Shown piece after piece: positions 14,106-63,449 of a stretch of DNA of 64,000 nt. The notes below the pieces were generated by a model. It worked only from the letters and a program-made list of their open reading frames with translations, was not told where the DNA came from and ran no database searches. Positions within the stretch are counted from its first letter, which is position 1. Each line of letters starts with the position of its first letter. The position numbers and the translations under genes are program-made. Where the stretch lies: positions 29,991,374-30,055,373 of the forward strand of contig NC_133121.1 of assembly GCF_033568475.1 (NCBI RefSeq), given 5' to 3'. Source of the DNA: Henckelia pumila. Taxonomy: Eukaryota; Streptophyta; Magnoliopsida; Lamiales; Gesneriaceae.

Positions 14106-15355
14106 GATCACCTACTAAATAGAACTTAGGCATGCAATTAACTTAATCAAACAGTAAACCAGAATTAAGCTGCGGAAACCATAAACAATATACAATCCCA
14201 AGGAAAAGAATCTGCAAATACCCAAATAGTTATACAACCAAATCGAACGTTGTATCAACTCAATACAAAAGAATAAACCTAGACGAAGCTCCAGCTGGCC
14301 AACCACTGCCTAGCCCCTCTTGGATCCACCCGCCTCGTCCAATCGCAAACCTGCCCCATGGAATAAGGTGTCCAAAAACACAGAGTACAAGACGTGAGCA
14401 TAAAACGCTCAGCACGAGAGTATGAGTATACATGCATGCAAGTGTACCGTCTACTGACTGGAGGTCAAGAATCAGATAACAAAGATAGACCGGGCCCTGG
14501 TATGTAGCACGTTGTGCCGTCGCTTTAGGAGGTGGCTCACATGCCGAAAATACCAGTGGATACGTGGGACCCAAATTGATGGAAGTCCGTCTACTAACAG
14601 AATAGGGTAAACCCTACTAACAGACATCTCAAACGAGATAGCTCAAGATGTAAATGTATGCAGCATAAAATCATGGCATATAAATCATGCAGTCACATAA
14701 TACATGCATACTCAGTCAGGATATCTCGAACAGTACTTTCGTACCTCAAATACTAGGTGCGCTCTACCAGCTCTAGGTCTACGCCTATAATCCGCACTAC
14801 ACTGCCAAATGATACTAATATCATTATAGTGCTCTAAAAGATACTCTTAAATATTTTTAGGAAGCAAAAGCTATATCTTCGTCCGTCGTTAGCCCTTTGC
14901 TGTCGATTGCCTCAAAACTAGGCCACAGCTCCGCTACGACGCCTGGATCGCTATGCCACTTCCGGATTCCCAATGGGACGCCTAGAATGCCCTAGATCTA
15001 AGCTAGAAGGCTGAAGAAACGAGAGAGAAGAGGTGATTGGTGCGTCTGAAAGTGAACCTTGGCACCCCTATTTATGGACCACGAACGGAATGTCCGTTCC
15101 TCATCGTTGCGTCCGTTCTGCCTGACAAACGTTGCTTCCGATGTCCCATCAAGTGCGTAAGCAATGACGCATTTCAGATGGCACAAACGTTGCATCCGAT
15201 CCCTGGATGTTGCGTCCGTTCCTTCTGACCCTCCGGACCATTTCTGATCATTTCGGGTCTAATCCCGGATTCCGTTAATCCATTAAGAGTTCCCTTAATC
15301 ATGTTAATTGGATTAATTAGCAATTACTCACTAAAACTGGGTTTGGGCTACTACA
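14088..15355 (-). repeat. 3' LTR of the chromovirus
   Basis: Reads TGTAGTAGCC... on the minus strand and matches 29259-30564 with substitutions and small indels; the other LTR has ~20 extra bases near 30010-30035. The outer end reads TATAATGACC where the partner reads TGTAGTGACC. A TATA-like box (CCATAAATAGG on minus) lies at 15068-15077, with GC-rich dyads just upstream of it from 15083. Confidence 0.92.
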
Positions 15356-15380
15356 TTCTCCCTCACTTAAGATATTTCGT
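15356..15380 (-). promoter_or_regulatory. Polypurine tract of the chromovirus
   Basis: On the minus strand the sequence before the 3' LTR is AAGTGAGGGAGAA, the purine-rich primer for plus-strand DNA synthesis. It directly abuts the LTR end at 15355. Confidence 0.8.
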
Positions 15381-15488
15381 CCTCGAAATTAGATCTTAAG
15401 TACTGAATGTAAAACAAGATGCAGAAACATTTTTTATTCAAATCAAACATTTACAGAGTTTACAACAGAATACAACTCGAAAAGAAAA

Positions 15489-18781: not shown

Positions 18782-18786
18782 CTCTT

Positions 18787-20640: not shown

Positions 20641-20654
20641 ATCTCCCACTTGCC
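20641..20654 (-). promoter_or_regulatory. Polypurine tract of the copia element
   Basis: Reads GGGCAAGTGGGAGAT on the minus strand directly against the 3' LTR. It overlaps the end of the gag-pol frame by almost nothing. Confidence 0.75.
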
Positions 20655-24569: not shown

Positions 24570-26169
24570 AGTAATGAAATACTGAATAGGAAACAGACAA
24601 TAACCAGTGATTTGTTTAATTAATTTACTAAGACATAAAATATGGCGAATTTCATTTTATGAATTACACTCCCACTATTTTGACGATTTCACTACCCTCT
24701 AGTGAAAATGAGAAACATTTTCTTTAGTGGGAACATGGAGTCCAATTGACAAACTATGATCCCGAATAATATCAGCCAACCATAATTTTCAAAAGGTAGA
24801 GCCCAATTGCTTCCAAAGCAACCTCCATGTTTTTACCTCATTTCCAATAAGGGCCCAATAATATGACGCCGTTTATTGTGACATGTCAAGATGACCCATC
24901 AATATTAAGTTGTGATGGACGGTCTCCATGTGGATCCCCAATAATATGAGCCAATCCCATGGGAGTTCCACCCAACTTACAACATGTGTCGATCCAATGT
25001 ACAGCTTTCCGACGAACGGGCCTCCCCAATAATATGAGCCGGACCGTATCCGCGGGTAGCATCACATACATTGATCGTTGATGGAAGGTAGGAATATTTA
25101 AACAATATTTAAAATTCCCTTTTGTTTATCTTGATATCAATTTTAAATCATATTTAAAATGAGGGATTTTATTTTTGAAATTTGTCTCATCATGCAAATA
25201 TATGTATGCTTGCGGGATTCATACAATTTAGTCTAAACATGCATACATCAATAATATCATATATTATTAAAGGATGATCGATCCCATTAACTATTCGATC
25301 CGTGGTTGCCAATCACGAGTCTAAGTCCAATCCTAGATGTTATGCAAGTATGCAATGCAATCCTATTACATTGTGCTTTCAATTTACATTTCTTCGGTCT
25401 TCATTGTCTGCTGGGCCCACCATTTCTTCAAATCTTTGTCTCCCACTAAGTCTAATAAATTTACAATAAATTTCGATGACAAATATGGGATACATTTTTA
25501 GGGATGGGAATGGGCCATAAACCAGACCCACTTTTATTACATATGACAATCATATTGGGCTATAAATCATGCCCATTAATAAACACCAACAACAATAAGA
25601 CAAATATAAATCACCTAACATACACCTAAAACATTGGTCATGGCAATCGATCATCCTTTATCCATTAATTAATTTAATAATTAAATAATTGGATAAACAT
25701 GCAATGGCATCATAATTTAAAAGATAAAATCATATTTTATCTTATCCATCCATAAGATCATATCTTATCATCAATTGTACCAAAATAATTAATTTTATAA
25801 AATTTAATTTAACGGATAAAATTTATAAATTTTCCAAAAATTCAAATTTATCCAAAAATCAATTTTAAAAATTTTGAACTCGAACAATTCGATCCGATGC
25901 CTCGTGATCTAATCAAAAACAATTTTCGATCGGATCAAACACAAGAATTTCAAAAATTAAAATTTTTTAAAAAAATTAAAATTTTAATTTTCCAGGCTGC
26001 CTGGGACAATCCCGGGCAGCCCGTCGCTGCCCATTGGGCAGCGATCCGATCGCTGCCCGTGTTTTGCCCGTCAAAATTTTGATTTTTTTTAAAATTTGTT
26101 TTGTTTCAAAAACGAGGCTTAAAAATTTTGTACAATCGATTAATTTAATCGTTTGATCTGAGCAACCTG
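24570..26169 (-). other. Copia 5' leader (about 1.6 kb) between PBS and gag
   Basis: No coding frame. 24761-25040 holds four copies of a CCCAATAATATGAGCC-type motif, starting at 24761, 24854, 24937 and 25025, that is a decayed tandem repeat of ~83-93 bp. 25995-26057 holds GC-rich overlapping hairpins. The rest is AT-rich. Confidence 0.8.
25995..26057. repeat. GC-rich hairpins in the copia leader
   Basis: 25995-26021 folds with a 12-bp stem (one T-G pair) and a 3-nt loop. 26025-26043 is a perfect 8-bp stem (CGCTGCCC) with loop ATT. 26037-26057 is a perfect 9-bp stem (GGCAGCGAT) with loop CCG. The last two overlap and are mutually exclusive, an arrangement that could switch. They stand in an otherwise strongly AT-rich leader. 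Confidence 0.8.
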
Positions 26170-26182
26170 TTTCTGATACCAC
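26170..26182 (-). promoter_or_regulatory. Primer binding site, initiator tRNA-Met type
   Basis: On the minus strand, next to the 5' LTR, the sequence is G-TGGTATCAGAA, the standard complement of the plant initiator tRNA-Met 3' end except for the last base or two. Confidence 0.85.
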
Positions 26183-28057: not shown

Positions 28058-28062
28058 CTCTT

Positions 28063-29240: not shown

Positions 29241-29258
29241 ATGCTCTGATACCATAAA
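29241..29258 (-). promoter_or_regulatory. Primer binding site of the chromovirus
   Basis: On the minus strand, TTTATGGTATCAGAGCAT follows the 5' LTR. TGGTATCAGAGC is the classic initiator tRNA-Met complement. Confidence 0.9.
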
Positions 29259-30564
29259 TGTAGTGACCCTTACCGAGATCACCTACTAAATAGAACTTAG
29301 ACATGCAATTAACTTAATCAAACAGTAAACCAGAATTAAGCTGCGGAAACCATAAACAATATACAATCCCAAGGAAAGGAATCTGCAAATACCCAAATAG
29401 TTATACAACCAAATCGAATGCTGTATCAACTCAATACAAAAGAATAAACCTAGACGAAGCTCCACCTGGCCAACCACTGCCTAGTCCCTCTTGGATCCAC
29501 CCGCCTCGTCCAATCGCAAACTTGTCCCATGGAATAGGGTGTCCAGAAACACAGAGTACGAGACGTGAGCATAAAACGCTCAGCACGAGAGTATGAGTAT
29601 ACATGCATGCAAGTGTATCGTCTACTGACTGGAGTTCAAGAATCAGATAACAAAGACAGACCAGACCCTAGTATGTAGCACGCGGTGCCGTCGCTTCAGG
29701 AGGTGACTCACATACCGAAAATACTAGTGGATACGCGGGACCCAAATCGATGGAATTCCGTCCACTAACAGGATAGGGTAAACCCTACTAACAGACATCT
29801 CAAAAGAGATAGCTCAAGATGCAAATGTATGCAGTATAAAATCATGGCATATAAATCATGCAGTCACATAATACATGCATACTCAGTCAGCATATCTCGA
29901 ACAGTACTTTCGTACCTCAAATACTAGACGCGTTCTACCAGCTCTAGGTCTACGCCTATAATCCGCACTACACTGCCAAATGATACTAATATCATTATAG
30001 TGCTCTAAAAAGCCTTAACTAGGCTATTGCATACTCCTAAATATTTTTAGGAAGCAAAAGCTATACCTTCGTCCGTCGTTAGCCCTTTGCTGTCGATTGC
30101 CTCAAAACTAGGCCACAGCTCCGCTACGACGTCTGGATCGCTATGCCACTTCCGGATTCCCAATGGGACGCCTAGAATGCCCTAGATCTAAGCTAGAAGG
30201 CTAAAGAAATGAGAGAGAAGAGGTGATTGGTGCGTCTGAAAGTGAACCTTGGCACCCTTATTTATAGACCACGAACGGAACGTCCGTTCCTCATCGTTGC
30301 GTCCGTTTTGCCTGACGAACGTTGCTTCCGTTCTCCTTCGTTGCTTTCGATGTCCCATCAAGTGCGTAAGCAATGACGCATTTCAGATGGCACGAACGTT
30401 GCGTCCGATCCCTGGATGTTGCGTCCGTTCTTTCTGACCCTCCGGACCATTTCTGATCATTTCGGGTCTAATCCCGGACTCCGTTAATACATTAATAGTT
30501 CCATTAATCATGTTAATTGGATTAATTATCAATTACTCACTAAAGCTGGGTTCGGGCTACTACA
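29259..30564 (-). repeat. 5' LTR of the chromovirus
   Basis: 1306 bp, homologous to 14088-15355, with canonical TGTAG...CTACA ends. A TATA-like block (CTATAAATAAG on minus) lies near 30259-30269, with GAACGGA / TCCGTTC dyads just beside it. Confidence 0.92.
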
Positions 30565-36880: not shown

Positions 36881-37273
36881 AAACCGGAGCTTTGGAGCGT
36901 GGTTCCACAATTCTTCCTCCCTTGAAGTCTCTCCTTTTACCTTGCCCTGAACTTTGCCCTCTAGACATGAACTGTTGTCGTCTTTGCTGTCTTGACCTGT
37001 CTATTTCTTGTTCATCTTGTTCTGCCAACAATGCCTTGTCCACTATTTCTTTGTAATCAGCAACCTTGGACATTCTCACATCTCTTTTAATTTCAGGGCG
37101 AAGTTCTCGTAGGAAATGCTCTCCTTTTTCACTGTCATTCTAAGCAATGTATGACACATACTGAGACCCTTCTTCAAACTTTTGTATGTACTCCACAACA
37201 ACCATATTTCCTTGTTTTAAATCTAAGAAATCTCTTGCTTTTCGTGCCTTCACATCCTTGCTAAAATATTTGT

Positions 37274-44523: not shown

Positions 44524-47179
44524 TGAAACGACCCTAAGTCTATAATTAATAAATAAATATGCGGAATTTTTTTTTTTTTTATACTTACTAAATAAAATAT
44601 GTACATATATGCCCATACATATATGCACAGAATAAAAAAATTTAAAAATAAATAAATAAATAAATAAATACTTAAATAAAAATGCATTCTTTAAATAAAA
44701 TAAATATCTGAGTCAAACATTTAATTAAAAATACTGCATAATTAAAATGATTAAAGTTTGCATGCACTGACAATATTCAATAAAATATTCAAAACTCACA
44801 ACCACTGAAAAATAATATAAAATGTGTAACGTGCTGACATAATCAAAAACATGCAATGTGACTCAGACATCTATCACGGTCACGGGGTCACTGCATGTCC
44901 GCTCATATGTCCTCGCCGCCGGTAGGAGCTACATCCTCCTCTACGAACTCACCTGCACCATACCAGTGTAGTGAGCCTAGAGGCCCAACATGCTAACATA
45001 ACAAGGGTTTAAAATAATTTAAAACAATTAAATATTAATACATAACATATACATGAATGAGCATGCTTAAAAATATCATGGCATAAACATAACTTAAATT
45101 AACTTAAATAACATAATACATACATATTGTTGAGCAGTTAAATTTCTAACATCGCATGGTTGTATCCGTAGTGTAACCTTAAATCATACATTAAATACTG
45201 ATCAGCGTGGAAACCAACGTACGTGGCGGTGACGAATCACCTCTTAAATTGGCAGTAAACTGCCCTTCAATAGTTCACATATGGGGACGAATCCCTCTTA
45301 AATTGTCACACTACTTCAACTTCCAACATAAAATATTTTATTATGGCTCAACCTTAAACACTTAATTATGCATAAAATTATTTCATGAATGCATGTACTT
45401 AAATAAAATGTGTGTCCTTCATATATATTTAATTTAATTTCTTACTAACATATAAATATTAAAATAACTTCAATGCATAAAAATAATTAAATATATAATC
45501 AGGACACATGCAAATTTCTCATGGATTGTACTGGACTGCTGGCCCTAACACTCAAGCCCAATTACTTAAATCTGGCCCAATAACATACTTAAGCCCAATA
45601 AAATTGTTCTAAGCCCAATTAAAATAATTTAAAGCCCATAAAACATTCTAGGCCCAATAACAACTTAAACTGGCCCAATGGGCCCAAAAGCCCAAAGACT
45701 GGACCAATAAATTTTATGGGCTCAAAAGCCCATAAAATTAATGGACTAACTTAATTAAAATTTTAAAACCTAAATAAAATTATTTGGGAGTCCAAATAAT
45801 TTTATTTCTAATTAATTGGCCCAAAAACCAATTAATTCATAAAATACTTTAAAAATAAAAAGACTCGAGCCCGGCCCACCGAACCCAGACCCGGACCAAC
45901 TTAACCCGACCCACTACCCTACTGACCTGACCCGGACCACAGACCCGACCCGGACCACACCTAAAACCCTAAACCCGATCCCCCCTACCCGACCTTCCCT
46001 CGGCCGTGAGCAGCAGGCCTTCATGGCCTGCTGCCGGCCAGCTCCGGCCACCCCTGGCCGGAGCGCCACCGCCCAGACGTAGCCCACGTCTGGGCGGTGC
46101 TAACCTGCCGTGGCTCAGCCCGAGCCACGGTCCCTACCTCCAACCCGAAGACTTCTTCCATGGAACCCTAAACTGCACCCCCTTGGACCATCATCGAGCC
46201 ATCGTGTCTCAGCCCCCTTTCCAGCCCAAACCAGCCAAGCCACCCCAACCTAGGGACCCTAAGGAACCCCCTTCAACCTCTGTCCAACAGCCATACAAGG
46301 CATGAAGCAAGAAAACGTGAACATGGAAGAATAACATGAACCAAGTGCATTCCAATCAAAACCAAACGATTGTTTTCTGAAATTTCCTTGAGAAATTCTC
46401 ATGCATACACACGCACACTATTAACTACTGATATGACACGAAAGTAGGGAAAGAATCATGCCTTGCACCGAAGAAATCGATTGAGCAACGTACGTAGAAC
46501 GTTTTCGGGACGACGGGACGACGACGACTTGCTTTGGACCTTCAAAAAAACGTGGCTATGGTGTTCTTGGAGGTGTCTCGGTCAAAGGAGATGATGAATA
46601 GTGGGGGTGGCGGCTGATGGAGGTGAGTGATCGGCTAAGGGTTTGGGTAGATTAGGTTTTGGGGTTTTATTTTAATTAATATAGGTTTTAGGATAATTAA
46701 AAGTTTTAAATATAAAACATAAAATTTTAAAACTCTAAATAAAAGTTAAAAATCTGATAATTTAAGTTAAACATATAAAAAATCCCGAAATTACAAATTT
46801 AGGGAATTTTAAAAATGCTAAAAAGTCAATATTTTGGCTTATTTTGAATAAAATGGACTCCTAAAATTATATAAAATTAAATACTAAAAATTTTGGGGTA
46901 ATAAAACTCAAAATAATATTTTAGGGCTCTAAAAAGGCTCATGAAATTAATTGGCTAGAAAGTTGTCATCTCGTCCGTCCACGGTCCCGTCTACGCGATA
47001 AAATAATTAAAATACTAAAAATCATAAAAATCACTAATTATGGGTTAAATGCTTAAAAAATAAATTAAATCATGCACAAATAATTCACATAATTATTTAA
47101 CCCATAAATCTAAAATTTAAATAATTAAATTTCCTAATTATGCATGTGGAATTACGTATTTAAAATACCGGGTGTTACA
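44524..47179 (-). mobile_element. Solo LTR, family C (2656 bp), minus strand
   Basis: On the minus strand it runs TGTAACACCCGGTATTTT...GGGTCGTTTCA. It has a perfect 5-bp target duplication AGAGA at 44519-44523 and 47180-47184. No coding region; the proline-rich frame at 46006-46305 is a by-product of a GC-rich hairpin cluster. Gypsy-type by its ends and size. An (AAAT)n run lies near 44641-44670. Confidence 0.92.
46010..46130. repeat. Four consecutive perfect GC hairpins in solo LTR C
   Basis: 46010-46034: 10-bp stem GCAGCAGGCC, loop TTCAT. 46041-46064: 10-bp stem GCTCCGGCCA, loop CCCC. 46067-46099: 14-bp stem CACCGCCCAGACGT, loop AGCCC. 46108-46130: 9-bp stem CCGTGGCTC, loop AGCCC. Every stem is perfectly paired, although the surrounding LTR is AT-rich. 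Confidence 0.95.
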
Positions 47180-49371: not shown

Positions 49372-49568
49372 TGATAGGAGTCGTTTTTCTTTGTTTTATT
49401 GTTTGTTTTATTAGTGTTTTGCATTCGTTCTTAGTGGTCTTGTTAGTGTTTTTCTAATTTTGTTTGCTTTTAGTGTAATGTTGTGTGTTTTGTCTACTCC
49501 TATTGATTTATGGTTAAATTGGCAGGAAAAATAGAAGAAAAAAATAATTCCAGGCTTCATCAGGGGGT

Positions 49569-49750
49569 GCGCTCGGTCTGCTGAAAAGAGCAGACCGAGC
49601 GCTGGCATTATTTTTCCAGGCAAAATGTTGAAGAGTTAGGGGCGCTCGGTCGGTGAAATTGTGCAGACCGAGCGCTCGCTAAAAAAAATCGGGCAGAATG
49701 TTGAAGAGTTTAGGGCGCTCGGTCATTGAATTTTTGCAGACCGAGCGCCC
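49569..49750. repeat. Hairpin triplet in the Athila 5' LTR, 73-bp period
   Basis: 49569-49602: perfect 14-bp stem GCGCTCGGTCTGCT, 6-nt loop. 49642-49675: 10-bp stem GCGCTCGGTC, 14-nt loop. 49713-49750: 12-bp stem GGGCGCTCGGTC, 14-nt loop. GCGCTCGGTC begins at 49569, 49642 and 49715, exactly 73 bp apart. The stems are conserved while loops and spacers vary. Confidence 0.95.
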
Positions 49751-49805
49751 GCGCGTATTTTTGGAAAAACTTTGTTTTGGGTGTTTTAAAAGGAAATGAC
49801 TCTGA

Positions 49806-49825
49806 AAGCGATATATATAGCATCT
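49806..49825 (+). promoter_or_regulatory. TATA-like box of the Athila 5' LTR
   Basis: GCGATATATATAGCATC lies ~60 bp after the last hairpin. It is the best candidate core promoter of the element; the transcription start was not mapped. Confidence 0.55.
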
Positions 49826-50772
49826 TTTAAGACGTTTTGAGGGTTGGAAAAACACAGAAAAGAACGGCGGAGGCGGCTCGAAGATCGAAGTTTCTTCTTC
49901 TCGTTGGGAGTTCTTCTTCTTCTTCACGATTTCTGAATTTTATGTTGAAAACTTTATTAGTTTGAATTTTATTATGAGTTGTAGTAGCTAAACTTTATTT
50001 TGTTGGAATTTAGGGGATCCTAACCCCGTAACATGTTTTTGTGATTGAATTGTTGGACAAATTGACTGAGTTTTTATGCGAGTATTTGATTTTATCATGT
50101 TTTATTATTCTATGTTGAGGAGTAGCTAACTTCAATATAGATTCGTAAGTTGTGAATTGCTGTCGAAAGATAGATTCATGATTAGGACGAGTGATAAAAT
50201 CCATGGACTTAAAATATGCATAGAGATATGATATTTAGTACATGTTGATAACCATAGACCACCAGGTTGAAAGTTGTAGGAATTCAATGAACGCAAAGCA
50301 ATTAGTAATGATAAATAATCAAAGAGATTTAATTGTTTCATTAACTTGAATTAGATTGGCATAAACTCGAGAGAGAGTGTCGATATTTTAGGAATTTTTG
50401 TCAAATCTATGAGTGTGAAAGTAATTTCAATTGTCTAGATTCAATTAGGGGGAAGGTGAACCGAGATTCCAACAAAACTTCTTCATATTATTTTTTTTGT
50501 GCTAAACATTGCTGTGGGTTATTTTATTTTCATTCGAGTAATCTTAAATCAAATTCTTTTCTTTATAATTTTATAATAATCAAAAATCAAATTTTTGTTA
50601 CTTTGGAGTATAGAAATTAAATAATTTAATTATTGTGACGTAGTCCCTGAGAACGATACTCGTACTCAGTACACTTTTCTATAACTTGAGTCGTGCACTT
50701 GCGATAATTTTGAGCAGAAAAGAGATATTATTACATTGAATTTAAGTGTTGGTATTTGTTCGATCAAGTTTT

Positions 50773-50790
50773 TGGCGTCGTTACCGGGGA
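50773..50790 (+). promoter_or_regulatory. Athila primer binding site
   Basis: TGGCGTCGTTACCGGGGA lies 6 bases after the LTR. This is the TGGCGCCGTTGCCGGGGA-type PBS of Athila/Tat elements with two differences; the primer is usually given as tRNA-Asp or a related tRNA. Confidence 0.8.
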
Positions 50791-51582
50791 CTATTGATTA
50801 CTTTGATTTTTCTTATTTTATTTTCTCTACTTCAATTTTAATCACTATTTTCATCTGTGAACTGCAGGATTCTCTTGCAGTGCATGCAACATTCACCTGA
50901 AAGAGAACTCTTGCCTTTTGATCCAAAAATTGAAAGAACTTTTCGCAGAAGAAGAAGGCAACAAAGAGAAGCTATGGCAGAACAAAAACGACTACGTGGA
51001 GATGGAGAAGCAGAGAATATTGCACCACTTATCTATAGATCCATGATGGACAGTGCTTTGCCATCCATCGAAAATGCCAGACCAAGCATCATCAGGCCAA
51101 CCATAGCAGCAAATCAGTTTGAAATAAAGCCTGCCATCATTCAAATGATGCAAAACATAGTCCAGTTTGGTGGGATGACAATCGATGACCCATATGCTCA
51201 CCTGACGAATTTTATTGAAATCTGTGACACTTTTAAGATGCAGGAAGTTTCTGATGACGCTATTCGTTTGCATTTATTCCTTTTTTCTTTAAGAGATAAA
51301 TCTAAAGCATGGCTAACAAATCTACCTGCAGGTTCCATCACTACTTGGAATGATCTAGCAAAGTCCTTCCTGACTAAATACTTTCCAACGTCCAAATCAA
51401 TGAAACTCGGAGCTGACATCACAACATTTACTCAAGGTGAACAGAAAACACTCTATGAAGAAGGGGAGCGTTACAAAGATCTACTGTGGAGATGCCCACA
51501 TCACCAACTACCAGACGGTCTTGTGGTACAAACTTTTTATTATGGTCTTCCTCACTCAAATCATACCATGTTAGATGCAGCT

Positions 51583-54178
51583 TGTAAGGCCCGAAAATAT
51601 TAAATTATTAATTATGAGATTTGAGAATTAAATTTCATATTATGGGCTAATATTGATTTGAGAAGTTATGGACATGATAAATTTAATTTCTGAATCAAAA
51701 ATATTTAATTTGAGAATGTACGGATTTTGAGAATTAAATTTCGAGAATTCTTAAATTAAAAGAATAAATATTTGATTTGAATATTTATGGAATTTGAGAT
51801 TAAATTTCATATTTCGGAAATTAAAGAAGATGTATTTTGAAGATGAAACCCGACCAGGGGTTGATTTGAAAATATCAAAGATTTGAGGGCTAAAGTGCAA
51901 AAGGCCGGGATTATTGATTTAATCCGAATTTATTTAATTTTAATCTGAGTATATTTAATTTGAGAATATTTAGAGTTTCGATTTTAATTCTAATATTCTT
52001 AAATTATTTTGGATTGAAATTGAATTAAAACGAAGGCCGAGGACTGAATTGCAATTACTGAAGACTTGAGGGACTAAATTGCAATTTATGCAATACATAT
52101 CTGATTTTAATTATATGAATCAGCTTGCAACGTGTAATTTCAAATTTCATTCAGAAAGTGAAGAACAGAGGAAGCCGAACCCTCTTATTCCTTTTTCGGT
52201 TTGATTTTCAAATCGTCGTAACTTTTGATCCGCTCGTCCGATTTCGATTCCGAAAGATGTTCTGGAATCCTTGTGACGAAGCCTTCGATTTGATGTAAGT
52301 ATTTTGTTCTCTCGGCATGTTTTGAAGAAAGGAATTTGGCAGAGAACAGTACCTTGATATAGTTTCATGTTCTTGATCGTATATGTGTTTCGTTGTCGAG
52401 ACCGGAATGATGAGTTATTGTTATATGAACTTCTGAGTATTTCAACATGTTTTGACTTGTTAATATGTGATTATAGCTGATGATATGATGAATTGAACGA
52501 TGAATTCAGCTGATATAAGTGATACGAATGATTGAGTTGATTAGAAATGAATTCGATACTGAGTCGGTTCCCGATTTTTAATCGCTACGCCACCGGTTGA
52601 TGTTTTGACATCGTTTTGATAGCCTATAACTGAGTTGAGATAGTTTTTTAGATGTTATGAATGTTATGGCATTTGTATTTCTCGATTTCAGTTGAGTTTC
52701 GAAGGCTAACGATTCAAGACTCCGAGTTATATCGAATTAGAAGGAGTTGAAGTTTGAAATGATGTTGATTGAATCTATATTGATGATTTTGATTCAATTC
52801 TGAAATGATTGAATAGAATGAGGTTTGATGTAAATGTTTGATGATATGTTTCAGAGTTTAATAGGAGACTATTGACTCAAAAACCTCAACTTGAAACCGA
52901 AGAAGAAGTGATCAAGATGGAAGTGAATGTGAGTGAAGATGATTGATGTTTGAATGATCAGATTCTTGTAGGAGTTGTTGTACTTCCTATTCAGATGTGG
53001 AACATCGTCAACTCGAGAATGAAAGGTATAATGACGACATCACGAGTCAGGGACTGTGAAAATAAAGAACGACTATTCTTGAGTTATCCTGAACAAACCA
53101 CATACTTGTTTAAGTATTTGTTCTTGAGGTAGAACTTATGTTATTGTCGATTCATCACAGGTAGTGGATCTTTATTGCTTTTGATATGATTGTATATTGA
53201 ATTGATTCTATGCCAAGGTTGCAGTTAACCTTATTTTCTAGCCCGGAATGGCTACGATAGATGGATATCCATGTCAAGATCGGATACGAATCTTGATGGC
53301 AACGAAGTGATAAGAATCAATTCTTGAGATAAGCGCGCTATATAAATTGAGTTTTGATTTGAAGTTTGAGTCGATATATGCGTTATCTTTACTCTATTCT
53401 TGAGTTGATATGTTTAGAGTTGATATGAATTTATTTAACGCATTTATATGTCGATTATACTGAGAATGATTTCTCACCGGAGTTTATCCGGTTGTTGCTT
53501 TGTTTTGTATGTGTGCATTGCAACAGGTGGGGCAGGAGCTTGGTTGAGAGAACATTGATAGCTCGGGAGAGAGATGTAGCAAGTTTGGACTCGGGTTAAG
53601 TTGAAGAATGGTAGCAAATAGCATTGAACTTGACATTGAAATCTTGTTTAGAAGCTCACTATTGAGAGTTAGTGTAGCTTGTTGATTTATGTCTTTTATG
53701 CTATTCATTGGATGTATTAAATTGTATGAGTTGATAATAGGAACTTGGTATATGAATGTATGCATGTTTTCAGATATTATAACATCCTTAGAATTGATTT
53801 GGATGATAATATATACATTGTACTAAAGTTTTGACAGCAAAAGATCAGCAGCAGAATTCGAGCAAAAGTTGGCTAGCTCGATCGGGTGAATGTTACCGAT
53901 CGAGCGAGGCCTGTTTTTCATGGGCAGAGAATTCGATTTTATTGCTCGCTCGATCGGTAGCTTTTGCCCGATCGAGCGAGACCAAATTTTGTTCAGACCC
54001 GAGAATTTGATATTTTGCTCGCTCGATCGGCTGATTTTTCCCGATCGAGCGAGGCTCTGGAATTTTAAAAAAAAAAAATTTTCTTGCTCTTGATTTATTA
54101 TTCTTTTAATTGTTTGATTAATTGTTTAATTAATCATTAGTTGTCCTAAGACGAGATTAGCAACCCGAGGTCCCCACA
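51583..54178 (+). mobile_element. Solo long LTR (family A, copy 2), 2596 bp
   Basis: Runs TGTAAGGCCC...GTCCCCACA, with target duplication CAGCT at 51578-51582 and 54179-54183. It is the same family as 11601-30893. No coding content: short frames such as 52950-53132 have no features. Three hairpins lie near its 3' end (53876-54053). Confidence 0.95.
53876..54053. repeat. Hairpin triplet in solo LTR A, 72-73-bp period
   Basis: 53876-53905: 10-bp stem GCTCGATCGG, 10-nt loop. 53945-53980: 13-bp stem CTCGCTCGATCGG, 10-nt loop. 54018-54053: 13-bp stem, 10-nt loop. GCTCGATCGG begins at 53876, 53948 and 54021. The stem sequence differs from that of the Athila hairpins but the architecture and spacing are the same. 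Confidence 0.95.
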
Positions 54179-55044
54179 CAGCTGCAGGTGGAAATTTGTT
54201 ACGAAAATCACCAGAGGACGGATATGAGTTAATTGAGGAGATGGCATCCAGTAGCTATCATCGTCAATCAGAGAGGAATGCAGTCAGAAAACCCGCAGGA
54301 ATGCATCAAGTTGATGCATTCACTTCAGTAGCCGCTCAACTAGAGGTCATGAATAAGAGGATAGAAGAGCTAACTCTAGGGCAGTCTGCAATGCGTATTC
54401 AAGAGGTGTGGTGTGAGAAATGTGGTGCTGAACACTTCACGAAAGATTGTCAAACTGGCAATCCATTATATCAGCCAGATGGAGGAATGGTAAACCATGT
54501 AGAAAATCAGAATCACCCCAGGAATGATCCATTCTCAAACATTTATAATCCAGGGTGGAGACAACATCCAAATTTTTTGTGGGGAGGGCAGAATAATAGG
54601 CCATATGGGAATCAGAATTACGGAAAACAACCTCAAGAGGAGAAGTCAAGCATGGAACAGATGATGTAGAAGTTCATATCATCCACTGAGACCAGAATGC
54701 AGAATCAGGATGCATCGATTAAGAACTTGGAAAATCATATTGGGCAGTTAGCCAAAGCAATGTCCAGCAGAGAGCTAGGTACTTTACCAAGTGACACAAA
54801 AAAGAATCCAAAGGAGTAGGTCAAGGCTGTTGAATTAAGAAGTGGGAAGAAACTCGAAGGTGAGAGACAAAGAGAGAAAGAGTCAGAACCGTCTACACTA
54901 GGGACAACTGCAGGTAAGTCCTCTAATTCTACACAACCACCCACATCACAGTCAAATATTGTTATTCCTCCACCTTTTCCTGCAGCTCTCAAGAAGGCCA
55001 AACTAGATTCTCAGTTTGCCAAATTCCTAGAAGTATTCAAGAAG

Positions 55045-58000
55045 TTGAATATAAATATCACCTTCGCTGATGCACTGACGCAAATGCCTAGTTACGCTAA
55101 ATTTTTGAAGGAGATTCTCTCCAGCAAGAGAAAATTGGAGGAGCATGCAATGATTAGCCTAACAGAAAATTGTTCGGCGCTAGTTCAGAACAAGATTCCA
55201 CCAAAGCAAAAGGATCCAGGGAGTTTTTCTATTCCTTGTGTTATTAATGATGTGCAATTTCAAAAAGCTTTGTGTGACTTAGGTGCGAGTATAAACTTAA
55301 TGCCATATTCTGTTTTCAAGAAACTGAACTTGGGAGAGCCGAAATCCACCCGGATGTCGTTACAACTGGCGGACAGATCTATCAAATATTCCAGGGGAAT
55401 AATAGAGGATGTGCAGGTGAAAGTCGATAAGTTCATCTTTCCGGTGGATTTTGTGGTGCTTGATATGAAAGAGGACTTGGACATGCCACTTATATTGGGA
55501 AGACCTTTCCTGGCAACAGGGAAAGCATTAATCGATGTCCAAAAGGGAGAGCTACATCTGAGAGTGGGAGAGGAGAAAATTTCCTTTGATGTTTTTAATG
55601 CACTGAAATTTTCACAAAATGATGAAGAGTGTTTTCAGATTGATGTTGTGGACTCACTTCTATATGATTATGTGCAGGACACATTTCAGGAACCATTAGA
55701 AGCCGCACTAATATCCCCTCATCGTGATGACATAGTCAATGGGGATAAAGAAGAGATGACAGCTTACTTGAATGATAACCAGTCATGGAGGAAAGGTGGC
55801 AAGCTCAGACTCGAAGATCTTGGTGATCGGAAGGATTTAGTCCTCCAGAAACCAAGTCTTGAAGAACCACCAACTGTGGATTTGAAACCATTACCTACCC
55901 ATATCAAATATGTCTTTTTAGGTGAGAATGAAAATTTACCTGTCATAATTTCTTCTTCTTTGACAGGTGAGATGGAGACCAGCTTGCTAAACGTTCTCAA
56001 AAGTCATAAGAGTGTGTTTGCCTGGAAGGTTGCAGATATCAAAGCTATTAATCCATCTATCTACATGCACAAGATATTAATGGAAGAGAACATCAGCCCC
56101 ATGGTCCAACCACAGAGGAGATTGAATCCAAAGATGCAAGAAGTGGTAAAGGTTGAAACGATAAAACTTCTGGATGCAGGTATCATTTATCCCATTTCTG
56201 ATAGTGCATGGGTAAGTCCGGTGTAATGTGTACCCAAAAAAAGGGGAAATAATTGTCATTAAAAATGAACAGAATGAGTTGATACCTAGGATAGTTACAG
56301 GGTGGCGTGTATGTATAGACTATAGAAAATTGAATGACGCAACCCGTAAAGACCATTTTCCCCTCCCCTTCATTGACCAAATGTTAGAAAGGCTTGCTGG
56401 GTATGAGTTTTATTGCTTTTTAGATGGGTATTCAGGATACAATCAAATTCCGATTGCACCTGAAGATCAGGATAAAACAACTTTCACTTGCCCATATGGT
56501 ACATTTGCCTATAGGCGCATGCCTTTTGGTCTTTGCAATGCTCCTGCGACTTTTCAGAGATGCATGACTGCTATATTTCATGATATGGTCGAAAATTTTC
56601 TAGAAATATTCATGGATGATTTTTCCATTTTTGGCCAGTCTTTTGATGCATGTCTGAATAATCTTAACACTGTTTTGATGAGATATGAGGAAACAAACTT
56701 GGTACTCAACTGGGAAAAGTGTCACTTCATGGTGACCGAAGGTATTGTATTAGGACACCGCATATCGGAGCAGGGAATCGAGGTGGACAGGGCCAAGGTG
56801 CAAGTCATTCAGAATCTACCTCCACCGACGACGATCAAGGGAGTCAGAAGTTTTCTAGGCCATGCCGATTTTTATCGGCGGTTCATTAAATATTTTTCAA
56901 AAATTGCAAAACCTCTGTCTTTATTATTGATGAAAGATACGCCTTTTAATTTTGATTCCACTTGTTTGCAGGCGTTTGAATTTTTGAGAGAAAAATTGGT
57001 GACTGCACCAGTGCTGACTTCACCATATTGGATCTTCCATTTGAGGTAATGTGTGTGACGCCAGCGACACAGCTGTCGGAACTGTACTTGGCCAGAGGAT
57101 AGACATGGTATTTCGTACTATTTATTATGCTAGAAAAACCTTAAATGAGGCTCAATTGAATTATGCTACCACTGAAAAGGAGTTGCTAGCTGTAGTTTTT
57201 GCATTGTACAAGTTTCACTCATACCTTGTACTTTCGAAAATCACTATATACACTGATCATTCTGCAATTAAACACCTTTTGGCTAAGAAAGATGCAAAAC
57301 CTAGGTTGATTAGGTGGATTCTACTCTTACAAGAATTTGACTTAGAGATAAAAGATAAAAAAGGAGTAGAAAATGTTGTTGCTGATCACCTATCTAGACT
57401 AGAATGCATTCCTGATTGTGCAAAGAATGATACTGAAGAAATAGATGATTGGTTTCCTGATGAGAAGTTGTTTGCCATAGAACACTCACCGTGGTATGCT
57501 AATTTTGCAAATTACTTGGTCACGAGCACACTCCCACATAATTTGTCTTTTCATCAAAAGAAAAAGTTTTTATCAGATGTCAAGCATTATTTTTGGGAAG
57601 AACCTTTCTTGTTTAAAATCTGTGCTGACTCTATGATCCAGAGATGTGTGGCAGAAGGAGAAATGACAAGCATCCTCAGTCATTGTCATGATCATGAGGT
57701 AGGTGGCCATGTTGGGCCTATCAAGACGGCAGCTAAGGTACTTGAATGTGGGTTTTATTGGCCCAATCTTTTTAAAGATGCGCGTGCTTATGTTCTTGAG
57801 TATGATAGATGTCAGCGGATAGGTAATATATCAAACCATCATGAAATGCCATTGAATAATATTATTGAGTGTGAGATATTTGATGTGTGGGGAATCGACT
57901 TCATGGAACCATTTCCAAACTCTTTTACAAAAAAATACATTTTGATTGCCGTCGATTATGTTTCTAAATGGGTAGAAGCTGAAGCTTTTGCGACTAATGA

Positions 58001-58775
58001 TGCACAGGTGGTTCTAAAATTTTTGAAGAAAAATATTTTTAACCGCTTTGGTACACCCCGTGCAATTATTACTGATGGTGGCACCCACTTTTGCAATAAA
58101 CTTTTGGAAAAACTTTTGAAAAAATATGGTGTCAAGCATAAAGTTTCTACAACTTATCATCCCCAAACGAGTGGCCAAGTCGAAGTATCCAATCGAGAAA
58201 TTAAGCAAATTTTAGAAAAAAGTGTGAGTACTAATAGAAAAGATTGGGAACTTCGACTTGATGATGCATTATGGGCCTATAGGACTGCTTTCAAAACACC
58301 TATAGGCACTTCCCCTTATAGACTGTTGTTTGAAAAGACATGTCATTTGCCAGTTGAGTTAGAGCATAGAGCATATTGGGCTATCAAAACATTAAATTTT
58401 GAATTTGCTGCTGCAGGTGAGAAAAGATTGCTTGAGCTAAACCAATTGGAGGAATTTCGTGATCAAGCATATGATATGGCGGTGTCATAAAAAGAAAGGA
58501 CCAAGAGAATACATGATCGGCACATTCGTCATAGAGAATTCAAGGAAGGGGAAGCAGTTCTTCTGTTTAACTCTGGGTTGAGGTTCTTTCCTGGAAAATT
58601 GAAGTCTCGGTGGTCCGGCCTGTACAAAATCACTAAGGTGTATCCATCGGGGGCCATTGAAATCAAAGATGCAAGAAACGAGTCTTTCACGGTCAATGCT
58701 CAGAGACTGAAACACTATGTAGGGGGTGATGTCGACTCTACGCAAGTCATCACCACACTGACGGACCAAGACTAG
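55045..58775 (+). pseudogene. Athila pol: protease, RT, RNase H, integrase
   Basis: Protease has LCDLGASINLMPYSVF and LILGRPFLATG (55260-55520). RT has CIDYRKLNDATRKDHFPLPF, FCFLDGYSGYNQI and FMDDFSIFG (to about 57000). RNase H has CDASDTAVG and [11 protein letters not shown]. Integrase has a zinc region with GGHVG but EYDRCQ where CDRCQ is normal, a lost zinc-binding Cys. The core follows: [18 protein letters not shown] and GQVEVSNRE (D, D, E). Breaks: a CAA-to-TAA-type stop at 56224-56226 with an extra A in the following A-run; a one-base loss then two-base gain around 57040-57055; TAA at 58488-58490, after which the frame stays open to TAG 58773-58775. Confidence 0.93.
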
Positions 58776-58962
58776 TTTGGGGAGGAAAACAGTCGAGCTC
58801 TAGACTCTAAATTGAGAACTACTCCCTTACCTTAATTTTATTTTATTTTATTTTGCTTTGAAATTTTTTTTAAATTTTCCATTCTTTTGATTTCTAGTAG
58901 TTTTACTTTTCGTTTTTGTTTTTTTTGAAAAAAAAAACTCACTGTTTTACTCAAACGGGGGT

Positions 58963-59142
58963 GCGCTTGGTCTGCTAAAAAGAGCAGACCGAGCGCCCAA
59001 AACTCCCCCGTTCACTGTTTTCTTAAAACTGGGGTGCGCTCGGTCTGCTGAAATTAGCAGACCGAGCGCCCAAAAATCCCCAACTCTCTGTTTTATATAA
59101 TCGGGTATGCGCTCGGTCTGCTAAAAAGAGCAGACCAAGCGC
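58963..59142. repeat. Hairpin triplet between pol and the accessory ORF, 73-bp period
   Basis: 58963-58996, 59036-59069 and 59109-59142 each form a 14-bp stem of the type GCGCTCGGTCTGCT with 6-nt loops; the first and third have one mismatch or wobble each. Starts are exactly 73 bp apart. The stem is the same as that of the first hairpin in the LTRs, but the spacers differ. A TATA-like AATATATAAC follows at 59161-59170. Confidence 0.95.
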
Positions 59143-59157
59143 CTCGCGCAGAATATG

Positions 59158-59172
59158 AAAAATATATAACCC
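59158..59172 (+). promoter_or_regulatory. Possible internal promoter (TATA-like) for the accessory ORF
   Basis: AAAAATATATAACCCG lies 16-20 bp after the third hairpin and ~150 bp before the probable start of the accessory ORF. A CT-rich leader follows (59180-59260). Promoter activity is inferred from layout only. Confidence 0.4.
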
Positions 59173-59309
59173 GATCCCCTTTTCCTCTCTTATTTCTTTC
59201 TTTCCTTCTCTCCTTCAAAACCCTACGCCGCCTCCTCTCCTCCTTTTTCTCACTTTTGCTCATCAAATTCGCAGCTACTCTCTCTGATTTTTCTCTGATT
59301 TTGATTACG

Positions 59310-60447
59310 ATAGGTCCTAAAAGAGCAAAGATTGCCACCTCTCGTGCTACTCCTTCTTCTTCCAACATCATTGATGGCAAGTTCATATCCATGGAGGCCA
59401 AATCACGCTATGAAGCTGCGAGGATCAATCGAAATCCTATTCCAGAGCGAGGCATCAATCTATCCGAGGCTCTTACTCTCGCCCTCAGCATCCCGGAACG
59501 TGGATGGGTTGAGTTTTTCCGAACACCACAAGCGGCTGTTGTTCCGTTGGTAAGAGAATTCTATGCAAATGCCCCGGAACGAACAGATAGCACAACCTTT
59601 GTACGGGGTAAGATGGTCTCTTTCGATCCTCAAGTTATTAACAATTTATTGAAAACCCCGGAGGTAGACGATAGCCTATTCCAAAAATTTAAAGCTAATC
59701 CGGATTATAATCTCGTGTCTGCTGCACTGTGTTATGATGGGAATGTGTGGAAAGATTCGGCTAGGTTCATATCTTTTAAAGAAATTTTTTTGATAATGGA
59801 ATCGGCTTTGTGGTATGCGTTCCTCATGGACCGAATGATGCCGGTGTCCCATACACATGTCATGGTGATGAGCCGATATTTGTTGTTGTATGCTTTGCAC
59901 AAGAAATGGCAAATCAATGTAGGAAAGCTCATCAACAGAGAGTTTATACAATTCCATCCGCTCACCGAACATTGGAATCTTCTTCCCTTCTATCGTCACC
60001 GTCCTCGGTGTGAAAGCTGGAATCAAAATCCGAGATGATGAAGAATGGCAGCATCCGATGCAAGATGTGGACCAGTCACTTATGAGGACAAATAGAACTT
60101 TCAGATTACAAGAGTTCACATCGAAGGGACAAGCAAGTTCCGGGGCCGGTACCTCTTCGAGCCGCATACCAAAACCAATGACAAATCGTCGCCCTGCCAC
60201 TGAGACGACAAATGAGCTGTATGCTTGGGCTCAATACCAGAATGAGTACCAAAAAGTTGATAGTGCACACTCGGAATCACAGACTGCTATGCTCCGCACA
60301 TTAATCTCTAATGCCGGATTGGATCCTGCTGCCTACCCCACTCCGCCACCATATCCCCCTCCGTTCCATTTCCACTACACTGCTCTTCGAGCAAATTATC
60401 CCGATGATTCAGATGATGAAGCCGAAGGCGACGACGAGGACCAATAA
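59310..60447 (+). pseudogene. Athila accessory ORF ('putative plant transposon protein' type)
   Basis: The likely original start, ATA GGT CCT AAA AGA (GPKRAK...), is an ATG mutated to ATA at 59310-59312; the next in-frame ATG is at 59391. The body has IPERGINLSEAL, FVRGKMVSFDPQVINNLL, the ARFISFKEIFLIMESALWYAFLM region, LLYALHKKWQINVGKLI and EFIQF, resembling the plant transposon-protein family Transposase_32. A frameshift near 60000 moves the frame to 60010-60447. The end carries a Pro-rich stretch (PTPPPYPPPF) and an acidic tail (DDSDDEAEGDDED). It has no signal peptide or clear membrane helix, so an envelope role is not supported. Function unknown. Confidence 0.75.
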
Positions 60448-62066
60448 TCAGGGGAGTTTTTGTTTTCAATTTTTTTTATTGTTTTTTGTGTGTGTTTTGC
60501 TTGTTTTCTTTTTGTTGTTTTGTTTCGTTTGTCTAGCATTGGGGACACTGCTAGATTTTAGTTTGGGGAGGGTGTCTTTTATGTTTTCATGTATATTGTC
60601 TTTAATTTTTTTTGATTGTTTGCATTTCGTCGTTATCTTTTGTTTTGTGTCGTGTTATGCATTTGTGGATGAAATCATAAAAGCCAGTGATGAAATTTTT
60701 TTTATTATGTTTGTGTTTGATAGCTGAAATCCATGAACATCTTCTGACAAAATTTTTGTTTAACTGGTAGAACCAAGTAGATGAATAGATCTTTATATAC
60801 TCTGTGATGTATGCTCGAGTCTGAATTTGGAACGTACAAACTTGGATAGGATTGAGGCGTTGTTTGAATTTTTGGGCCTACTTTCTCTTGAAGTAACATC
60901 ATCCTTAAAAGCCCTGTTGAGCCTTCACAATGTTTATGAGTACATGAGGTACAAAAATCTGAAATCTGTTGACAATCATCATTTACTGCTGATGATTGCT
61001 TAATTCTGCACTTGTCAAAATTTGTATGATTTGATTGTGAATTGAGACTTGTCTATAACTAGTTCGAACACTCTTCGAGGTGCAATACGGGCATAACTGT
61101 GATTAGGAATAATTTAGGTAATCTTTCTGTGAATCGTTTGAGCCTTTCAAGCTACCTTTTGATACATGCTATCTCTAGTACCTTCTTTGAGATTTATTGA
61201 AATCGAATGGCATGCGTGAAAACGTGGGAATAAACCTCAATTCTTCATTTTTTCTAATCCTACACTCATTACCGAAGAATAGCTTAAACACTATTTCCCA
61301 CCCTAAAGGGAGTAAGTTGAATGTGAAATGGCATATGCTTCGGAATTGTAATTGCAAAGTGAAATAGTGTATTTGGAAATGCTGAAAAAATAAAAAGAAA
61401 AAAATTTATAAAGATTTGAGATGAAATTTTTTTTTTTCAAAAGAAGTGAAGTCAATAGATTGATGAAATGAATTAGAAGGAGAAAGAAGAAGGCAACGAA
61501 AATGAACAGTTGGGTATAACTTATTTCCTTAACTGAATCGATATCCTTCGTTTGTAGCCATAAACCAGACCTAACATTATAAGCTTATTAAGACTTATTG
61601 ACCGAGTCACAGTTGCCCAATATACTAGTGGAGAAGGGTTGTGAGAATTTAGCCTATGGATAGTTGATAGACACTTTTAATGAGTATGGATTTTTGATCA
61701 AAACACGCACACACTGTAATTCTTTGATTTAAACCAATGTGAAGTGTGTATCATTGAATGTCTCTCATCTTTGAGCTTATAGTACCTAAAAAGTCCTCAT
61801 GATCCTTGAATGTGTGAATTGAATTCGGAGGAAGGTATGTTGATACGTGAGTTGCGGGATTTAGGAGTTTACAAAGTTTTTTAGTTTTTTTTTTTAAAAA
61901 AAATGTTAGTAGATTGATATGATTGGATTTGTAATCTTTTGGAAGAAATTCTGAGGCTTGAAAAGTTTGAGTTCATCCACCTTTGTCGTTGTGTCGTGTT
62001 TTTGTTTGCATTCTAGTTTGTCACCTATTTTGCTTGAGGGCAAGCAAAAGGTTAGTTTGGGGAGGT
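60448..62066 (+). other. Athila 3' non-coding region
   Basis: T-rich sequence with no credible gene; a Phe/Leu-rich frame at 60311-60727 is compositional. A copy of TAGTTTGGGGAGG lies at 60559-60571, just after a short GCATTGGGGACACTGC dyad (60536-60551). The polypurine tract lies at the end. Confidence 0.7.
62053..62066 (+). promoter_or_regulatory. Athila polypurine tract
   Basis: TAGTTTGGGGAGGT abuts the 3' LTR start at 62067. The same 13-mer occurs at 58773-58785, where its first three bases are the pol stop codon, and at 60559-60571. Confidence 0.85.
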
Positions 62067-63449
62067 TGATAGGAGTCGTTTTTCCTTGTTTTATTGTTAG
62101 TGTTTTGCATTTGTTCTTAGTGGTCTTTTTAGTGTTTTTCTAATTTTGTTTGCTTTTAGTGTAATGTTGTGTGTTTTGTCTACTCCTATTTATTTATGGT
62201 TAAATTGGCATGAAAAATAGAAGAAAAAAATAATTCCAGGCTTCATCAGGGGGTGCGCTCGGTCTGCTGAAAAGAGCAGACCGAGCGCTGGCATTATTTT
62301 TCCAGGTAGAATGTTGAAGAGTTTGGGGCGCTCGGTCGGTGAAATTGTGCAGACCGAGCGGTCGCTGAAAAAAATTGGGCAGAATGTTGAATAGTTTAGG
62401 GCGCTCGATCGGTGAATTTTTGTAGACCGAGCGCCCACGCGTGTTTTTGGAAAAACTTTGTTTTGGGTGTTTTAAAAGGAAAGGACTCTGAAAGCGATAT
62501 ATAGCATCTTTTCAGACGTTTTGAGGGTTGGAAAAACACAGAAAAGAACGGCGGAGGCGGCTCGAAGATCGAAGTTTCTTCTTCTCGTTGGGAGTTCTTC
62601 TTCTTCACGATTTCTGAATTTTTTGTTGAAAACTTTATTAGTTTGAATTTTATTATGAGTTGTAGTAGCTAAACTTTATTTTGTTGGAATTTAGGGGATC
62701 CTAACCCCGTAACATGTTTTTGTGATTGAATCGTTGGACAAATTGACTGAGTTTTTATGCGAGTATTTGATTTTATCATTTTTTATTATTCTATGTTGAG
62801 GAGTAACTAACTTCAACATAGATTCGTAAGTTGTGAATTATTGTCGAGATATAGATTCATGATTAAGACGAGTGATAAAATCCATGGACTTAAAATATGC
62901 ATAGAGATATGATATTTAGTACATGTTGATAACCATAGACCACCAGGTTGAAAGTTGTAGGAATTCAATGAACGCAAAGCAATTAGTAATGATAAATAAT
63001 CAAAGAGATTTGATTGTTTCATTAACTTGAATTAGATTGGCATAAACTCGAGAGAGAGTGTCGATATTTCAGGAATTTTTGTCAAATCTATGAGTGTAAA
63101 AGTAATTTCAATTGTCCAGATTCAATTAGGGGGAAGGTGAACCGAGATTCCAACAAAACTTCTTCATATTATATTTTTTTTGTGCTAAACATTGCTGTGA
63201 GTTATTTTATTTTCATTCGAGTAATCTTAAATCGAATTCTTTTCATTATAATTTTAGAATGATCAAAAATCAAATTTTTGTTACTTTGGAGTATAAAAAT
63301 TAAATAATTTAATTATTGTGACGTAGTCCCTGAGGACGATACTCGTACTCAGTACACTTTTCTATAACTTGAGTCGTGCACTTGCGATAATTTTGAGCAG
63401 AAAAGAGATATTATTACATTGAATTTAAGTGTTGGTATTTGTTCGATCA
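62067..63449 (+). repeat. 3' LTR of the Athila element
   Basis: 1383 bp, homologous to 49372-50766 with scattered substitutions and small indels. Hairpins begin at 62255, 62328 and 62401 (GCGCTC core), again 73 bp apart. The third has a substitution (GCTCGATC) that weakens its stem. Confidence 0.95.

What the first reader, a model, noticed from the sequence alone, without database searches (positions are those of the whole stretch)
15060..62450. Unrelated LTR retrotransposons share a GC-rich hairpin array, often just upstream of a TATA box
At least five families in one window carry clustered GC-rich perfect or near-perfect dyads in AT-rich LTRs or leaders: Athila (49569-49750, 62255-62440), solo LTR A (53876-54053), solo LTR B (36553-36775), the Tekay-type LTRs (15083-15225, 30270-30430), solo LTR C (46010-46130), the copia leader (25995-26057), and possibly the Tat-like LTR (47427-47530). 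Stem sequences differ between families, so descent does not explain the likeness. In Athila, the chromovirus LTRs, solo LTR B and the Tat-like LTR the array sits 5-60 bp upstream, on the element's own strand, of a TATA-like box. This suggests a convergent element: a host-factor binding array, a roadblock or insulator, or a silencing-evasion structure.
Basis: partly seen in the sequence, partly recalled or inferred. Interest (0 to 1): 0.87.

Follow-up and report, generated by a model that had tools for sequence, protein, structure and literature searches.

The report
Shared palindrome arrays in retrotransposon promoters
Several families of plant jumping genes in this genome carry the same rigidly spaced DNA palindromes, mostly in front of a promoter-like site and once in front of an envelope-like gene, which looks like a docking array for a host protein of a kind described before in one other retrotransposon group.

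Summary
The dyads are real, but the list mixes two things. (2) Tight GC hairpins in a transcribed leader: copia, possibly solo C. The Tat-like case is weak. "Unrelated families, different stems" is mostly wrong: solo B and Tekay LTRs are homologous, and solo-A-type LTRs elsewhere carry Athila's own palindrome. GCTCGGTC-N14-GACCGAGC occurs 891 times in the genome (reversed control 0); of 1040 such pairs with spacers of 4-34, 891 have exactly 14. Over 28 Athila LTRs, arm CpG sites vary at 4.3% against 21.3% in flanks, with no two-sided paired change. All 10 fetched pol-env junctions carry the array. Best reading: arrays of dimeric host-factor sites at the LTR promoter and at a second, pre-env promoter. 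Closest known: Sirevirus (Ty1/copia) RM boxes, with the same core, TATA position and pre-env copies. What looks new is the design in Ty3/gypsy elements. No binding protein or transcription start was measured; solo-A-type arrays are not before a clear TATA box, and the window's two Athila LTRs differ more inside the array than outside.

The parts
49569..49750 (+). Athila 5' LTR array: 3 palindromes GCTCGGTC-N14-GACCGAGC, steps 73 and 71 bp; TATA at 49812
62255..62436 (+). Athila 3' LTR array, same; TATA at 62498
58963..59142 (+).
59163..59169 (+). TATATAA after the pre-env array (candidate internal promoter, inferred)
59058..60038 (+). Envelope-like ORF frame (stop to stop), PF20167; first in-frame ATG 59391
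49372..63449 (+). Athila-type Ty3/gypsy element, LTRs 49372-50766 and 62067-63449, TSD TCCAT
51583..54178 (+). Solo LTR A inside the Athila gag, TSD CAGCT; plus orientation inferred from a relative followed by TGGTATCAGAG
53876..54053 (+). Solo A array: 3 units GCTCGATC-N14-GATCGAGC, near the LTR 3' end
36553..36775 (-). Solo B array, units GATCGGA-N3-TCCGATC; TATA at 36546
30266..30435 (-). Tekay LTR array, one clear dyad 30273-30289 plus degenerate repeats; TATA at 30266
15079..15225 (-). Tekay other LTR, one dyad 15083-15099; no strict TATAWA
25995..26058 (-). Copia leader hairpins (separate class, RNA type)
46010..46130 (-). Solo C, 4 tight GC hairpins (separate class, not CGG-CCG oriented)

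Best explanation
The CGG-CCG arrays are promoter-proximal clusters of dimeric binding sites for a host DNA-binding protein. Each site is a pair of inverted half-sites at fixed spacing: GCTCGRTC-N14-GAYCGAGC in Athila and solo-A-type LTRs, GATCGGA-N3-TCCGATC in Tekay/solo B. Shown here: sequence, spacing, conservation, position and sharing between families. Inferred: that a protein binds them, that binding recruits transcription at the LTR TATA box, and that in Athila the second array serves an internal promoter for the envelope-like mRNA. Fold-back potential would be a by-product, perhaps a liability as a source of small RNAs. The copia-leader hairpins, and possibly solo C, are a separate class kept as RNA structure.
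For: Rigid geometry: 891 of 1040 inverted GCTCGGTC pairs with spacers 4-34 have exactly 14; reversed controls 0 and 3. Conservation over 28 distinct Athila LTR rows: arms 0.039, spacers 0.112, linkers 0.201, flanks 0.093 mean minor fraction; CpG sites 0.043 in arms against 0.213 in flanks (26 and 20 sites, p 8e-7). No two-sided paired change among 64 arm substitutions. Array before env in 10 of 10 junction-spanning stretches out of 20 fetched; its linkers, spacer and downstream sequence do not match the LTR's, only the palindromes and PPT do. Same palindrome in solo-A-type LTRs. Symmetric alternatives: inner positions 1/14 are T-A in 28 and G-C in 7 of 46 listed sites, and GAACGGA...TCCGTTC in the window Tekay against GATCGGA...TCCGATC in a relative. 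TATA 60-odd bp after the LTR array in 25 of 28 rows.
Against: No protein, start site or expression was measured. Between the two LTRs of the window's own Athila the array has more substitutions (11 of 182) than the rest (30 of 1200). The arm-flank contrast over all sites is not significant by rank test (p 0.07), and rows share ancestry. Solo-A-type arrays lie 78-206 bp before the LTR end motif, with a TTT-AAAA box in only 4 of 12. Strict TATAWA after the pre-env array is in the window copy only; the looser A/T box found in 11 of 11 was defined after looking and in related copies. Arrays fold strongly as RNA (z -7.9 to -11.5 for Athila, pre-env and solo A).
Confidence: 0.6

Rival explanations
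1. RNA or cruciform hairpins: the arrays act by folding, for example as dsRNA that feeds small-RNA silencing, or as structure in the 3' end of the RNA, where U3 is transcribed.
For: Folding z -7.9, -11.5 and -9.6 for Athila U3, pre-env and solo A arrays. Palindrome-rich maize Sirevirus LTR regions attract small RNAs (PMC10760457 and PMC5311732, passages).
Against: All arms keep one sequence, with 0 two-sided changes among 64 arm substitutions in LTRs and 1 in 38 pre-env units, whereas the copia-leader hairpins differ in stem sequence yet stay paired. Tekay/solo B units have 7-bp arms with 3-nt loops and fold weakly (z -2.1 and -3.9). A pair that hardly varies is weak evidence either way.
Confidence: 0.17
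2. Passive module: a 73-bp minisatellite-like unit that spread within and between LTR families by unequal exchange, template switching or nested insertion, without a function of its own.
For: Tandem units with variable number, 2-4 before env. One of two solo A linkers resembles Athila linkers (3 and 7 of 200 shuffles reach the score). Array divergence between the window's two Athila LTRs is not reduced.
Against: Arms are kept while linkers differ; pre-env linkers do not match LTR linkers; fixed spacer. The second solo A linker does not match (125 and 67 of 200).
Confidence: 0.13
3. Architectural element: unit steps near 73 bp (about seven helical turns, or half a nucleosome) position nucleosomes or insulate.
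For: Steps of 71-75 bp in Athila LTR, pre-env and solo A arrays, once 69; central A/T runs of at least four in 46 of 46 listed sites.
Against: Placement just before promoter-like boxes fits activation better; Tekay/solo B units follow another step, about 20 and 69 bp.
Confidence: 0.08

Closest known systems
Sirevirus repeated motifs (RM boxes), Bousios et al. 2010, PMC2829016 (abstract, sections 6, 9, 10, 19, 20 and passages read)
   Same: Palindromic repeated motif with CGG-CCG core, in LTRs shortly upstream of TATA, CpG-rich, with extra copies upstream of the env gene; one listed motif, CGGACCGTCCG (HOPIE), occurs letter for letter in a solo B unit.
   Different: Carriers here are Ty3/gypsy (Athila, Tekay-type), not Ty1/copia; the Athila-type spacer is 14 bp; copy number is lower (3 per LTR plus 2-4 before env).
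Maize Sirevirus LTR palindromes as small-RNA hotspots, Bousios et al. 2016 (not held; seen as described in PMC10760457 and PMC5311732)
   Same: Palindromes in the cis-region of an LTR.
   Different: Small RNAs could not be tested here; the 2023 maize survey reports that Ty3 elements generally lack an obvious peak of such structure.
Tnt1 box I and other symmetric LTR activators (named in PMC2829016 section 19)
   Same: Symmetric cis-element in an LTR.
   Different: Sequence and copy number not compared here.
Grande accessory gene with its own promoter (title seen in a reference list)
   Same: Internal promoter in the 3' internal region of a plant Ty3/gypsy element.
   Different: No array compared; paper not read.

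Membership tests
Sirevirus RM boxes | Palindrome with CGG-CCG core | tested here: met
Sirevirus RM boxes | Cluster upstream of a TATA box in the LTR | tested here: inconclusive
   Met in Athila (25 of 28 rows), Tekay 5' LTR and solo B; not met in solo-A-type LTRs
Sirevirus RM boxes | Extra copies upstream of env | tested here: met
   Athila, window plus 10 of 10 junction-spanning stretches of 20 fetched
Sirevirus RM boxes | At least eight copies (LTR plus linker) | tested here: not met
   Athila: 3 per LTR plus 3 before env in the window, 2-4 in relatives
Sirevirus RM boxes | Forms a CpG island of about 400 bp | tested here: inconclusive
   CpG o/e 1.01-1.70 in arrays, but arrays are 147-223 bp
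Sirevirus RM boxes | Carrier is a Ty1/copia Sirevirus | tested here: not met
   Athila has RVT_1, RT_RNaseH, Integrase_H2C2 and rve in Ty3 order; the solo-A-type relative L077 has a Ty3 capsid
Athila (env-class Ty3/gypsy) | LTR-gag-PR-RT-RH-INT, then an env-like ORF | tested here: met
   lineage name itself is recalled, no RT tree was built
Athila (env-class Ty3/gypsy) | Extra polypurine tract in the 3' internal region | tested here: met
   TTTGGGGAGG at 58776, 60562, 62056; extra PPT of Athila4 and Calypso noted in PMC2829016
Small-RNA hairpin source | Small RNAs map to the palindromes | not testable with these tools
   no small-RNA data held

The most novel reading that the evidence does not exclude
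One host DNA-binding protein, or a small family, that recognises inverted CGG half-sites has been recruited by both plant LTR superfamilies, Ty1/copia Sireviruses and Ty3/gypsy Athila and Tekay-type elements; in env-bearing lineages of both, the same array was installed a second time to drive a separate envelope-like mRNA from an internal promoter.
Probability: 0.25. Interest if true: 0.85.

Novelty: new variant of a known kind. Interest (0 to 1): 0.62.

Why it matters
How plant env-like genes are expressed is open: splicing, stop suppression or an internal promoter (PMC2829016 section 20). An array followed by an A/T box at every junction examined gives a short, concrete site to test. A 34-bp probe with a fixed 14-bp spacer makes a direct search for the host factor possible, and sharing between lineages would explain how unrelated elements come under one control.

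Tried and rejected
Long-hairpin scan for Tekay/solo B: not significant, replaced by the short N3 unit. Whole-LTR duplication as the source of the pre-env array: PPT-to-array spacer and post-array sequence are not alike (244 and 351 of 500 shuffles reach the score). Common descent of solo A and Athila arrays through linkers: suggestive for one linker, not for the other. Rfam and tRNA scans of the window: nothing. Relatives of the Athila RH-INT protein in viral and prokaryote contigs: none confirmed. Literature, 10 searches: 15 and 51 returned no paper; the listings of 26, 27, 32, 50, 54, 87, 125 and 126 named none on CGG-CCG palindromes in Ty3/gypsy LTRs, but 87, 26, 32, 125 listed papers that I did not open, the library is open-licence only, and Bousios 2016 is not held. 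Never answered: genome searches with the pre-env, Tekay and solo A DNA, and the count of GATCGGA-N{0,30}-TCCGATC.
Full report
SETTING. The window is plant DNA made of nested LTR elements: an Athila-type Ty3/gypsy element on the plus strand (49372-63449, TSD TCCAT), a Tekay-type chromovirus on the minus strand (LTRs 29250-30564 and 14079-15355; a Chromo match just under Pfam's cut-off) holding a copia element (18787-28061), and solo or partial LTRs. Lineage names are recalled; no tree was built. The window lies in an 885-Mb genome held as G000. The env-like ORF's best protein match is from Primulina eburnea at 49%, so a lamialean host is likely but unproven.

CHECK OF THE OBSERVATION. Perfect dyads (arm >=7, loop 0-20, GC >=0.5) against 200 dinucleotide shuffles, 12 regions: Athila LTRs 3 and 3, pre-env region 3, solo A 3, solo C 4 (0 of 200 reach each), copia leader 2 (5 of 200), Tat-like 2 (9 of 200), solo B 2 (13 of 200), Tekay 1 and 1 (60 and 72 of 200), copia LTR 0, the 11.6-kb LTR 0. 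An earlier scan with arms >=9 and one mismatch, 16 regions, agrees for Athila, pre-env, solo A, solo C and copia leader, but also finds 4 dyads in the left flank 1-11500 (0 of 40 shuffles), outside the finding.

TWO CLASSES. Over the window there are 24 dyads with CGG in the left arm and 14 of the mirror kind (shuffle means 2.2 and 2.5, 20 shuffles). Inside the Athila, pre-env, solo A, Tekay and solo B arrays: 14 and 3, the 3 all in solo B; in solo C 0 and 2; elsewhere 10 and 9. Many of these are tandem copies and not independent. CpG o/e is 1.01-1.70 in the first set and 0.36-0.73 in solo C, copia leader and Tat-like. Class I is CGG-CCG palindromes; class II is short-loop GC hairpins. In the copia leader, relatives L042 and L039 carry larger hairpin arrays at the same place, whose units differ in stem sequence yet stay paired, as an RNA structure would. 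Solo C is put in class II only on loop size and lack of the CGG-CCG orientation.

THE MISSED ARRAY. At 58963-59142, between the integrase and env-like ORFs, lie three copies of the Athila LTR palindrome in 73-bp steps, then TATATAA at 59163 and a pyrimidine-rich stretch. Its linkers do not match the LTR's, nor do the PPT-to-array spacer or the sequence after it. Of 20 stretches fetched upstream of Athila LTR hits, 10 span this junction and all 10 carry 2-4 units by a fuzzy rule; the other 10 do not span it. Steps are 73-75 bp, once 69. Strict TATAWA follows only in the window copy. A looser A/T box lies 16-20 bp after the last unit in 11 of 11, but that box list was made after seeing the sequences, without a background, and the copies are related.

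CONSERVATION. The Athila LTR search scored 40 of 640 candidates. I aligned 28 distinct rows (the window's two LTRs and 26 others; 12 scored hits were not fetched). Mean minor-base fraction: arms 0.039, spacers 0.112, linkers 0.201, flanks 0.093. By rank test the arm-flank contrast is p 0.07 over all sites, 2e-5 for G/C sites, and 8e-7 for CpG sites (0.043 in 26 against 0.213 in 20); shared ancestry makes these optimistic, and the hits were chosen by similarity to a query that held the array. Of 64 arm substitutions (plus 2 gaps) 47 are C>T or G>A, and none is a two-sided paired change. In 38 pre-env units: arms 0.05, inner eight bases 0.296, 27 linkers 0.219, one two-sided change. Against this, between the window's own two Athila LTRs the array has 11 of 182 substitutions and the rest 30 of 1200; for Tekay 6 of 147 and 56 of 1130. 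That pair records neutral decay since insertion, in which CpG-rich DNA decays fast, so it speaks to this copy and not to the lineage; I still count it as unhelpful to the claim. TATAWA follows the LTR array in 25 of 28 rows; L003, L011 and L021 lack it.

GENOME-WIDE GEOMETRY. GCTCGGTC-N14-GACCGAGC occurs 891 times, read backwards 0. With N{4,34}: 1040, control 3; so 86% have spacer 14. Of the 50 plus-strand places listed (first of contig C1), 46 have 14, three 23 and one 20. In the 46, position 2 is G in 44, position 13 C in 43, and an A/T run of at least four is present in all 46. Positions 1 and 14 are T-A in 28, G-C in 7, G-A 4, T-G 4, C-A 3: C at 14 is seen only with G at 1. Fixed spacing, kept half-sites and symmetric alternatives fit a dimeric DNA-binding protein better than a hairpin.

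SHARING BETWEEN FAMILIES. Of 16 loci that I picked from the pattern hits, 8 match the solo A LTR by BLAST; as pattern hits they carry Athila's palindrome by selection, which shows sharing, not frequency. Of 18 sources (the 16, L045, the window's solo A), 12 show the array 78-206 bp before the LTR-end motif, with a TTT-AAAA box in 4 of 12. In 5 of 17 loci a TGGTATCAGA site follows the LTR, and L077 has a Ty3 capsid. Solo A and L045 have the GCTCGATC form. Solo B and Tekay LTRs are homologous. Among 10 solo B loci, one of them the window, 0-5 units were recognised (none in L060), and TATAWA lies at the expected place in 8. A pre-chosen 50-kb stretch held a Tekay relative with 3 and 6 units GATCGGA-N3-TCCGATC or close to it in its two LTRs; the window Tekay has GAACGGA-N3-TCCGTTC, both half-sites changed alike.

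COMPARISON. PMC2829016 (abstract, sections 6, 9, 10, 19, 20 and passages) describes palindromic motifs with CGG-CCG core in Sirevirus LTRs upstream of TATA, forming CpG islands, with more copies upstream of env, absent from the other Ty1/copia elements compared, and offers an internal env promoter as a hypothesis. The architecture here is the same; carriers, spacer and copy number differ. PMC10760457 (passages) reports that maize Ty3 elements generally lack a peak of such structure. None of my ten literature searches listed a report on Ty3/gypsy, within an open-licence library and with several listed papers unopened.

VERDICT. It works like Sirevirus RM boxes but is not filed as such, since carrier and copy number were tested and not met. 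Best reading: dimeric host-factor sites at the LTR promoter and, in Athila, at a second pre-env promoter (0.6). Protein, transcription start and effect are unmeasured, and solo-A-type arrays do not fit the upstream-of-TATA rule.

Noticed in passing
L066, L069, L075, L078, L079 (also solo B locus L057); window copia 18787-28061: The window's copia family sits near palindrome arrays in 5 of 16 hand-picked array loci, once 15 bp away; none in a 50-kb sample. A target preference is possible and untested.
   Followed up: partly
58776, 60562, 62056: Three identical 10-base polypurine-tract copies TTTGGGGAGG in the Athila 3' part, after pol, after the env-like region and before the 3' LTR; multiple PPTs are a Sirevirus trait too.
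   Followed up: partly
L042 2490-2770, L039 4330-4530; window 25995-26058: Copia leaders carry arrays of tight GC hairpins, variable in number, with stems that differ but stay paired; possible packaging, dimerisation or translation structure.
   Followed up: partly
3134-3812 and 37266-37867: Two copies of a repeat about 75-78% alike with GCCTAGGCGG palindromes, source of most dyads outside LTR arrays.
   Followed up: no
36604-36609 and 36685-36690: CACGTG (G-box-like) copies lie between the solo B palindrome units, and similar ones in the sampled Tekay relative.
   Followed up: no
48275-48576: GC-rich minisatellite of CCCTCGCC-type units in the Tat-like element.
   Followed up: no
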